A stretch of DNA of 64,000 bases. Source: an uncultured Oscillospiraceae bacterium (lineage in GTDB: Bacteria > Bacillota > Clostridia > Oscillospirales > Oscillospiraceae). The position numbers and the translations under genes are program-made. The stretch's first letter is position 1. Every line of letters begins with the position of its first letter. The stretch spans positions 1-64,000 of the forward strand of contig CAKTOJ010000001.1 of the NCBI GenBank assembly GCA_934589665.1, given 5' to 3'. Positions 6,461 through 7,202 of this stretch are shown piece after piece. The notes under the pieces were generated by a model. It had not been told where the DNA came from. It was given only the letters and a program-made list of their open reading frames with translations, and did not search any database.

Positions 6461-7202
6461 TTATCCGATGCCAGCGGCTCTCCAAAGCAGTGTTACGATC
6501 TGCGCGCGGGTGCAGCCGCCGTTGGGCGTCAGATATCCGCCGGAGCCCTGCATCACGCCCGCGCCGCAAGGCCCACTGCACTGCGGGGACGGCCCATTCG
6601 GGGATATCGAAGGCGTCCGCATAGCTGAGAATATTCGTATCCTCGCCGACACGCACGTCCGCGCCGCGATACTGCATATAGCGGTAGAGCATCGTGACCG
6701 CCTGTGCGCGTGTGAGCGCGCCGCCGTCGACGAGTATGACGGAATCCAGACCGTCACCGGAGAGAACGTGGCCGTTGAGGTCGAGCGTGACCTCGCCGGT
6801 AATCTTCAGCGGCGAGGAGAGATCTGTGTCGCGGCTGAGTGCGTACACGCCGCCGGTGAGCTCCGTCACGCCGTCGGGCAGGGACTCCGTGCCCTCCGGT
6901 ACGCCGGTGGGCAGACGCAGTACGAGATGCAGCGTGGCCTACCTTTGAATGTTGTACTCGGTGAGCGTTTTGCTATCCTCAAGCTGTTTGCCGGCAAAGA
7001 TGAGCTGCTGCTGCTCGGGCGGGATGCCCTCCCTTTCCTGCACCTTTGCCTTGACGGCGAGGACCGCGTCCGTCGGCTCGATCTCCAGCGTGATGGTCTT
7101 GCCAGTGAGCGTTTTGACGAAGATCTGCATGGCCGCGGCGTTTACGCACAGGACAAGGCAGAGCGTCAGCACGGTGAGGGTGCGCCAAAGTCGTTTTTTC
7201 AT
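6461..7202 (-). pseudogene. Broken gene: signal peptide, ubiquitin domain, beta-helix remnant, SLH domain
   Basis: Read on the minus strand this was one surface protein. A signal peptide is followed by a ubiquitin fold. A TAG replaces ubiquitin codon 64 (bases 6941-6939), and the same frame continues with ATLHLVLRL, the last ubiquitin strand. After a short linker comes a beta-helix-like piece (ITGEVTLDLNGHVLSGDG), which joins abruptly to an SLH domain (TRAQAVTMLYRYM, then FDIPEWAVPAVQWA), as expected after an internal deletion. One extra base near 6568-6569 shifts the frame; the next frame restores GAGVMQGSGGYLTPNGG and TRAQIVTLLWR and ends at TAA just before the terminator. SLH domains bind secondary cell-wall polymers, so the intact ancestor would have displayed ubiquitin on the cell surface. 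Confidence 0.88.
6939..7202 (-). CDS. Secreted ubiquitin-like protein, truncated at ubiquitin residue 63
   Basis: The intact 5' reading frame of the broken gene, 87 residues. Residues 1-24 are a signal peptide: positive start (MKKR), hydrophobic core and an AAA end, so cleavage after Ala24 would expose ubiquitin Met1. Residues 25-87 match human ubiquitin 1-63 at about 47 of 63 positions by my count. Kept are Lys6, Lys11, Lys27, Lys29 and Lys48, and the Leu8/Ile44 patch; positions 33 and 63 are Arg. The product ends at TAG, so it lacks the last strand and could not fold as full ubiquitin. Downstream sequence reads RLPTG where ubiquitin has RLRGG, so no conjugation-competent di-glycine existed. 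GGAGG lies 8 bases before the ATG. Confidence 0.85.
   Translation of the reverse strand: MKKRLWRTLTVLTLCLVLCVNAAAMQIFVKTLTGKTITLEIEPTDAVLAVKAKVQEREGIPPEQQQLIFAGKQLEDSKTLTEYNIQR

What the first reader, a model, noticed from the sequence alone, without database searches (positions are those of the whole stretch)
6939..7202. Near-eukaryotic ubiquitin coded with a bacterial signal peptide
On the minus strand, codons 25-87 match human ubiquitin residues 1-63 at about 47 of 63 positions, far above what convergent beta-grasp proteins (ThiS, MoaD, TtuB) show. The signal peptide ends AAA directly before ubiquitin Met1, so secretion would yield ubiquitin with its natural N-terminus. A secreted ubiquitin is known in Bacteroides fragilis; a version in a Gram-positive with its own SD site and promoter suggests an independent acquisition from a eukaryotic host. 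It could interfere with host ubiquitin systems or antibodies.
Basis: partly seen in the sequence, partly recalled or inferred. Interest (0 to 1): 0.95.

Follow-up and report, generated by a model that had tools for sequence, protein, structure and literature searches.

The report
Broken gene for a ubiquitin-tipped surface protein
A bacterium related to Dysosmobacter carries the wreck of a gene that once likely made a surface protein with a near-eukaryotic ubiquitin at its tip; the copy here is broken in three places and likely dead, while rare relatives with unbroken frames fuse ubiquitin to larger proteins, several of them predicted to sit on the cell wall.

Summary
In detail: codons 25-87 of the minus-strand ORF 7202-6939 match the commonest eukaryotic ubiquitin unit at 47 of 63 positions; the next best place in six frames of the window reaches 13. 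The reading as a working secreted ubiquitin is not supported. The same frame runs on past the stop into the rest of ubiquitin, the start of a repeat domain, and S-layer-homology (SLH) sequence. A relative without a stop (L018: signal peptide, ubiquitin, repeats, MBG, InlB-type repeat, SLH; 1,441 codons, cut by its contig end) matches that order. Against it the window copy has a stop inside ubiquitin, lacks most of the middle, and changes frame in the last SLH: a decayed gene of about 0.74 kb whose two ends remain. The ubiquitin-repeat fusion is shared with L018, so a separate capture from a host is not supported. Ubiquitin-bearing frames occur in 8 of 400 genomes of the family and 5 of 391 of the class. 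In 17 bacterial domains the core is kept (0.89) but di-glycine (1 of 17) and R42/R72/R74 (0.49) mostly not: likely a fused fold, not a modifier. Function is untested.

The parts
7254..7282 (-). weak sigma-70-like promoter site (TTTACG-17-TATACT)
   Evidence: 1 found, 0.5 expected by chance; not evidence of function
7209..7214 (-). Shine-Dalgarno GGAGGT, 6 bases before ATG
   Evidence: read
7131..7202 (-). signal-peptide-like N-terminus, 24 codons, ends AAA before Met1 of ubiquitin
   Evidence: by eye, no signal-peptide predictor on hand
6942..7130 (-). ubiquitin residues 1-63
   Evidence: PF00240, 2.8e-25; 47 of 63
6939..6941 (-). in-frame stop inside the ubiquitin domain (lesion 1)
6915..6938 (-). 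rest of the ubiquitin domain (last strand) after the stop
   Evidence: alignments to L018, L020, L026, L027
6711..6914 (-). start of the repeat (beta-helix-like) domain
   Evidence: L018 residues 47-199 to 7139-6711, 55.6% over 153 aa, E 4.5e-37 (ubiquitin included)
6706..6716 (-). place where the repeat domain runs straight into SLH sequence; most of the middle is missing against L018 (lesion 2)
   Evidence: L018 match ends at 6711, SLH match of L021 begins at 6710
6565..6710 (-). SLH remnant, same frame as ubiquitin
   Evidence: L021 residues 926-993, E 2.1e-10; like SLH ends of proteins of the nearest genus; no Pfam hit for the piece
6556..6575 (-). frame change within the last SLH (lesion 3)
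   Evidence: homology moves from frame -3 to frame -1
6461..6559 (-). end of the last SLH in the second frame, with stop
   Evidence: (L021 E 9.2e-5 and a weaker L018 hit in frame -1)
6415..6455 (.). 19-pair hairpin with a T tail on the + strand, between the convergent remnant and the phosphopantetheinyl transferase gene: possible shared terminator
   Evidence: 3 terminator-like sites found in 6300-7520, 1.2 expected by chance

Best explanation
The stretch is the 5' part of a broken gene, about 0.74 kb long, that once likely encoded a secreted, SLH-anchored surface protein with a eukaryotic-type ubiquitin domain at its predicted exposed N-terminus. SHOWN: the order signal-peptide-like start, ubiquitin, start of a repeat domain, SLH-like sequence; the stop, the missing middle and the frame change against relatives. 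INFERRED: if the gene is still transcribed, its start signals would give an 87-residue product that lacks the last strand of ubiquitin and any anchor and is likely degraded, so the locus would have no function now. INFERRED for the relatives: the signal peptide exports the chain, C-terminal SLH, sortase-type or peptidoglycan-binding parts (where present) hold it on the wall, and the ubiquitin fold sits at the far tip as a stable, non-conjugated cap or binding module.
For: Ubiquitin identity. Same order and homology past the stop: (L018, 55.6% over 153 aa; L021 SLH in two frames). Relatives with ubiquitin just after a signal-peptide-like start. Anchors in relatives: SLH in L018, L026, L021, L022; LPXTG-type end in L023 (19.9 bits, cut-off 15.9); peptidoglycan-binding domains in P0267. 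The SLH piece resembles SLH ends in six genomes of the nearest genus, none of which has a ubiquitin match. Ends kept: SD, SLH end with stop and a terminator-like hairpin. No sign that TAG is a sense codon: by a composition test the only TAG in the window with coding-like codons on both sides, apart from one antisense to a long gene, is this one. 17 bacterial ubiquitins: core 0.89, mean 0.79, R42/R72/R74 0.49, both glycines in 1 of 17.
Against: No whole genome is held for the window, so reads, copy number and a second intact copy could not be checked. No unbroken copy was found at the same locus; in the nearest genus 1 of 86 genomes has ubiquitin, in a different architecture, so the size of the missing middle is judged from a more distant relative. 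The SLH pieces alone give no Pfam hit. One of the 17 relatives keeps LRGG in line (L026). Lysines (0.84), the F4 patch (0.84) and the TEK-box sites (0.85) are kept above the mean, which a pure fold-cap reading does not predict. L020, L027, both L081 genes and L082 show no anchor (L081 and L082 by eye), so wall display is not a rule of the group. The Pedobacter copy (L002) has a stop in its signal-peptide stretch and may be broken too. None of the 50 gene picks left after two artefacts ends in TAG, against 15 of 235 picks in relatives' loci, some of which overlap; rare, not proof of anything.
Confidence: 0.8

Rival explanations
1. The 87-residue product is a working secreted ubiquitin, like Bacteroides fragilis Ubb, acting on host or rival cells.
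For: Signal peptide form, AAA before Met1 and SD site; B. fragilis Ubb is secreted and cut exactly before Met1 (PMC5705921, Discussion read).
Against: It ends at residue 63, before the last strand and any C-terminus; the homologous rest of the protein follows after the stop. B. fragilis Ubb is full length with a C-terminal cysteine (PMC3352274, passages).
Confidence: 0.05
2. The gene is whole in the living strain and the lesions are assembly or sequencing errors.
For: No reads or genome could be checked. A second gene nearby, an ATC hydrolase at 9299-9813, also looks interrupted. Long repeat genes are easily collapsed in assembly (general knowledge).
Against: Three lesions of different kinds in 0.7 kb would be needed, while long open frames cover most of the 64 kb (52 picks). 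The 22 genes were picked as open frames, so their lack of stops is no independent control.
Confidence: 0.1
3. TAG is read as an amino acid here, giving a short functional ubiquitin-SLH protein.
For: None of 50 gene picks ends in TAG apart from two artefacts; the frame after the stop is open for 198 codons.
Against: The SLH part still changes frame, so the anchor would be lost; no other place of the window shows an in-frame TAG with coding-like codons on both sides on the gene's own strand; TAG is rare as a stop in relatives too (15 of 235 picks).
Confidence: 0.03
4. This lineage captured ubiquitin on its own, directly from a eukaryotic host.
For: The tree does not place it with one bacterial group; the nearest row by identity is a polyubiquitin unit taken to be eukaryotic (78% over 63 columns; its source P0001 is unnamed); a clade of only the 11 Oscillospiraceae-type rows is disfavoured (p-AU 0.034).
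Against: The fusion of ubiquitin with the repeat domain is shared with L018, which needs common descent of the fusion or the same fusion twice. One clade of all 21 bacterial rows is not rejected (p-AU 0.066); 72 columns resolve few forks (3 of 44 starred).
Confidence: 0.06
5. The relatives' proteins work as host-ubiquitin mimics, binding ubiquitin receptors or blocking E1 (a rival on their function, not on the state of the window copy).
For: B. fragilis Ubb inhibits ubiquitination in vitro and binds human E1 (PMC3352274, passages). I44 is kept in 15 of 17, lysines 0.84, F4 patch 0.84.
Against: R42/R72/R74 are 0.49 identical, both glycines are kept in 1 of 17, and the I44 patch as a whole (0.72) is less kept than the average site (0.79), while the core is 0.89. 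The ubiquitin is fused, with no free C-terminus.
Confidence: 0.2

Closest known systems
Bacteroides fragilis Ubb (BfUbb; Patrick 2011, PMC3352274; 2017 mBio paper, PMC5705921)
   Same: Eukaryotic-type ubiquitin behind a bacterial signal peptide cut just before Met1; no C-terminal di-glycine.
   Different: BfUbb is a free, full-length ubiquitin with a C-terminal cysteine from Bacteroidota; here it is the N-terminal domain of a longer fused protein in Bacillota, and the copy is broken. BfUbb's sequence was not compared here.
L018, ubiquitin-repeat-MBG-SLH protein of genome G315 (unnamed, family of G001)
   Same: Same order of parts; 55.6% identity over 153 aa across ubiquitin and the start of the repeat domain.
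   Different: Open over 1,441 codons from its ATG, cut only by the contig end.
P0267, 1516-aa protein of unnamed source
   Same: Signal-peptide-like start, ubiquitin, repeat domain.
   Different: Ends in peptidoglycan-binding domains instead of SLH.
Ruminococcus albus 7 plasmid pRUMAL01 'ubiquitin family protein' WP_013483628.1
   Same: Signal-peptide-like start directly followed by near-eukaryotic ubiquitin.
   Different: 246 aa, no anchor or repeat domain matched.
SLH proteins of the nearest genus (L071-L076)
   Same: The SLH piece of the window is of their type (70-80% DNA identity over short stretches).
   Different: Where the frame was shown (five of six; L076 cut at its start, L074 not shown in the right frame) they carry other parts; their genomes have no ubiquitin match.

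Membership tests
Ubiquitin family (Pfam PF00240) | sequence match above the curated cut-off | tested here: met
   88.3 bits against 25.4
Ubiquitin family (Pfam PF00240) | complete ubiquitin domain in one open frame | tested here: not met
   stop after residue 63; the last strand lies after the stop
Eukaryotic ubiquitin as protein modifier | free C-terminal di-glycine and E1 contacts R42, R72, R74 (sites recalled) | tested here: not met
   window: Q at 42, rest after the stop; relatives: both glycines in 1 of 17, R42/R72/R74 0.49
BfUbb-type secreted bacterial ubiquitin | signal peptide ending just before Met1 | tested here: inconclusive
   AAA before MQIF, by eye; no predictor, cleavage not tested
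BfUbb-type secreted bacterial ubiquitin | free-standing ubiquitin of about 76 residues, C-terminal cysteine | tested here: not met
   the homologous frame goes on into repeat and SLH sequence
BfUbb-type secreted bacterial ubiquitin | antagonism of bacteria / E1 inhibition | not testable with these tools
   needs protein
SLH-anchored surface protein | SLH domains at the C-terminus | tested here: inconclusive
   SLH homology by tblastn (E 2.1e-10 to L021) but no Pfam hit for the pieces alone
Bacterial beta-grasp sulphur carriers (ThiS, MoaD, TtuB) | best profile match to those families | tested here: not met
   three families matched at E up to 0.01, all ubiquitin-type; of 303 PDB sequences at E up to 1e-10 the 60 shown are ubiquitins or ubiquitin-derived (that affilins are ubiquitin-derived is recalled)

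The most novel reading that the evidence does not exclude
Ubiquitin has been turned, in a scattered set of gut and rumen Clostridia, into a shuffled outermost cap of large wall-bound surface proteins: freed from conjugation, kept for its fold, and swapped between SLH, sortase and peptidoglycan anchors, with the window showing one lineage losing it.
Probability: 0.5. Interest if true: 0.62.

Novelty: new variant of a known kind. Interest (0 to 1): 0.45.

Why it matters
Ubiquitin is usually treated as a eukaryotic signal, with B. [quoted passage not shown] The relatives found here carry ubiquitin as a domain of secreted, often long Bacillota proteins in about 1-2% of the genomes sampled, with the modifier's C-terminal working residues largely lost. 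That lets one ask what the ubiquitin fold is good for outside conjugation, and whether hosts or neighbouring microbes see it. The window copy itself matters as a warning: the short ORF is likely not a working secreted ubiquitin.

Tried and rejected
Phage origin: no DNA match and no protein match in 50,697 phage records; none in viral contigs (19 stretches matched a pattern, none confirmed). Plasmid: 1 of 72,556 records, R. albus pRUMAL01. Direct protein searches with the ubiquitin part (7892 proteins, 120 listed; 2526 proteins, 120 listed) were swamped by polyubiquitins and said little about bacterial relatives. A search with the repeat domain alone gave 2503 proteins; of the 120 listed, 1 (P0267) carries PF00240, so ubiquitin looks like a rare partner of that scaffold. 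The tree could not count acquisitions: 47 rows, 72 columns, 3 of 44 inner branches starred; units ending LRGG were taken as eukaryotic without naming their source. For column counts 17 of 19 bacterial domains were used; L023 and L025, which have insertions, were left out; the 17 include four non-Bacillota (L002-L005) and the very diverged L019. TAG reassignment was examined and not supported. Eukaryotic contamination judged unlikely: GC 0.57 and GC3 0.83 for the ubiquitin codons, GC3 0.77-0.90 in 22 genes of the window (gene labels there are mine). dN/dS could not be used: silent sites are saturated or nearly so in most pairs. Structure prediction of L018's start gave no result.

Full report
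1. The observation. The minus-strand ORF 7202-6939 codes for 24 residues of signal-peptide form ending AAA, then 63 residues of ubiquitin, then a stop. The 63 residues match the commonest ubiquitin unit among the fetched proteins at 47 of 63 positions; the next best place in the six frames of the window has 13. Pfam gives PF00240 at E 2.8e-25, and 303 distinct PDB sequences match at E up to 1e-10; the 60 shown are ubiquitins or ubiquitin-derived.

2. What lies around it. Upstream on the same strand there is a GGAGGT site and one weak promoter-like match (1 against 0.5 expected); the next gene is a divergent carbon-nitrogen hydrolase. Downstream, the frame of the ubiquitin continues after its stop for 198 codons. 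tblastn of relatives against the window shows homology across the stop: L018 residues 47-199 match 7139-6711 at 55.6% over 153 aa, E 4.5e-37; L021 residues 926-993 match 6710-6519 (SLH), E 2.1e-10, and 849-879 match 6559-6470 in another frame, E 9.2e-5. After the last SLH comes its stop at 6461 and a 19-pair hairpin at 6415-6455 (3 such sites in the region, 1.2 expected), then the convergent phosphopantetheinyl transferase gene.

3. The lesions. (a) A stop inside the ubiquitin domain. (b) The repeat domain runs straight into SLH sequence at about 6711, while L018 has more than 1,100 residues between its matching start (to residue 199) and its SLH region (from about residue 1355 of a 1458-residue frame cut by the contig end). 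(c) A frame change at about 6556-6575. Both ends of the gene seem kept, so this looks like internal loss. Pieces alone gave no Pfam SLH hit, so the SLH call rests on tblastn and on DNA matches (70-80% over short stretches) to SLH ends in six genomes of the nearest genus (L071-L076; for L074 my frame pick was wrong and showed no SLH protein, and L076 is cut at its start). None of the six genomes has a ubiquitin match.

4. Is it a stop? In 52 crude gene picks of the window 27 end in TAA, 23 in TGA, 2 in TAG; the two are the ubiquitin piece itself and a pick antisense to the ORF at 54529-55755. In loci of relatives 15 of 235 picks end in TAG; some of those loci overlap and are counted more than once. 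By composition only two TAGs in the window have coding-like codons on both sides: this one and one antisense to the gene at 26226-28145. So TAG is rare, but nothing suggests that it is a sense codon.

5. Where the organism sits. Window 3655 to about 5844 (fabF to the MarR gene) is 79-81% identical to genomes G257, G213 and G001; G257 and G001 are in one genus, and G001 holds the contig titled uncultured Dysosmobacter, Oscillospiraceae by NCBI's ranks. The window's own genome is not held. The ubiquitin codons have the GC3 of the window's genes.

6. Relatives. With the ubiquitin piece as query: 8 of 400 genomes of the family of G001 (G001, the centre, is one of the 8), 5 of 391 of the class (G001 and G002, known before, are among them), 1 of 86 of the nearest genus (G001 again, with ubiquitin inside a 1,818-aa LRR protein). 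No match had a stop inside. Named ones: Pedobacter, Gilvimarinus, Algibacter, a Verrucomicrobia MAG, a Bacillota MAG and a Dysosmobacter MAG; the Pedobacter copy has a stop in its signal-peptide stretch. R. albus 7 pRUMAL01 has one annotated 'ubiquitin family protein'. Architectures: SLH ends in L018, L026, L021 and L022; an LPXTG-type end in L023 and a sub-threshold sortase-type end in L006 (16.4 bits, cut-off 18.15); peptidoglycan-binding in P0267; no anchor found in L020, L027, both genes of L081, or L082 (the L081 and L082 proteins were read by eye, not scanned); the frames of L019, L024, L025 and L083 are cut by contig ends. L025 matches Pfam Beta_helix_3; the other repeat regions are called beta-helix-like by their sequence pattern only. 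One genome, G488, has two adjacent signal-peptide-ubiquitin genes.

7. Conservation. In 17 gap-free bacterial domains (of 19) the mean identity to the commonest eukaryotic unit over residues 1-72 is 0.79; core sites 0.89; TEK-box sites 0.85; lysines 0.84; F4 patch 0.84; I44 patch 0.72; I36 patch 0.59; R42/R72/R74 0.49; di-glycine positions 6 of 34, both glycines in 1 of 17. The groups of sites were named from recall. The core and the lost C-terminal residues are what one expects when the fold is kept and conjugation is lost. The I44 patch as a whole is not favoured, although I44 itself is kept in 15 of 17; but the lysines and F4 patch are kept above the mean, which a pure cap reading does not predict. 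Mimicry is therefore less likely, not excluded.

8. Descent. The tree of 47 rows is mostly unresolved; one clade of all 21 bacterial rows is not rejected (p-AU 0.066), a clade of only the 11 Oscillospiraceae-type rows (P0267 of unknown source among them) is disfavoured (p-AU 0.034), and the nearest row to the window by identity is a polyubiquitin unit taken to be eukaryotic (78%). The shared ubiquitin-repeat fusion with L018 is the stronger evidence that the window inherited or received the gene as a bacterial fusion.

9. How it likely works. Now: likely not at all. Before decay, and in relatives, by inference: export by the signal peptide, display on the wall by the C-terminal anchor where there is one, and ubiquitin at the far end as a tough cap or binding module. 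Nothing here tests binding.

10. What is known. B. fragilis Ubb was described in 2011 and linked to antagonism of other B. fragilis strains in 2017 (PMC3352274: passages, some from the abstract; PMC5705921: passages and the whole Discussion). That Discussion calls B. [quoted passage not shown] In the listings (15 of 45 papers shown; 2 of 2; 3 of 3), and (no paper), I saw no title on ubiquitin fused to SLH or wall-anchored Bacillota proteins; others (15 of 72 shown; 20 of 102 shown) gave none either. Only open-licence PMC papers are searched. None of 8 proteins scanned against NCBIfam (the window piece and seven relatives) matched a model that names such a family. Hence: new variant of a known kind, seen here as a remnant.

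Noticed in passing
9299-9813 (-): An L-2-amino-thiazoline-4-carboxylic acid hydrolase gene (PF14196, 2.6e-16 for the downstream piece, profile positions 91-142; no hit for the upstream piece) appears split over ORFs in different frames: a second broken gene or a sequencing error near the ubiquitin remnant.
   Followed up: partly
34316-35644 (+) and 35965-37038 (+): A phage portal protein gene (SPP1 Gp6-like, PF05133, 8.2e-61) and an ORF without a Pfam hit that looks tail-fibre-like by eye, just before what looks by eye like a polysaccharide cluster: likely a small prophage remnant.
   Followed up: partly
L081:4755-5896 (genome G488): Two adjacent genes, each signal-peptide-like start plus ubiquitin plus about 80 further residues: a tandem pair of short secreted ubiquitins, one gene away from an ORF that looks transglutaminase-like by eye.
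   Followed up: no
L027 (R. albus 7 pRUMAL01): The ubiquitin gene lies in a run of same-direction genes, mostly hypothetical, with a phospholipase-C-domain protein and a dockerin protein, near an oppositely directed integrase/transposase gene, on a plasmid typed as mobilizable.
   Followed up: no
window, all genes: TAG is hardly used as a stop: apart from two artefacts, none of 50 gene picks ends in it (15 of 235 in relatives' loci).
   Followed up: partly
7299-7329: A perfect 13-bp inverted repeat with a 5-base loop upstream of the remnant and of its promoter-like site, seen by eye; an operator or old terminator.
   Followed up: no
L019 (G315:C134): The genome with the closest relative has a second signal-peptide-like protein with a very diverged ubiquitin domain (37% to the window piece; PF00240 5e-16) before the same kind of repeats.
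   Followed up: partly
L002 (Pedobacter sp. BS3), about 6019-6021: The Pedobacter signal-peptide-ubiquitin frame has a stop inside the signal-peptide stretch: another broken copy, or a different start.
   Followed up: no
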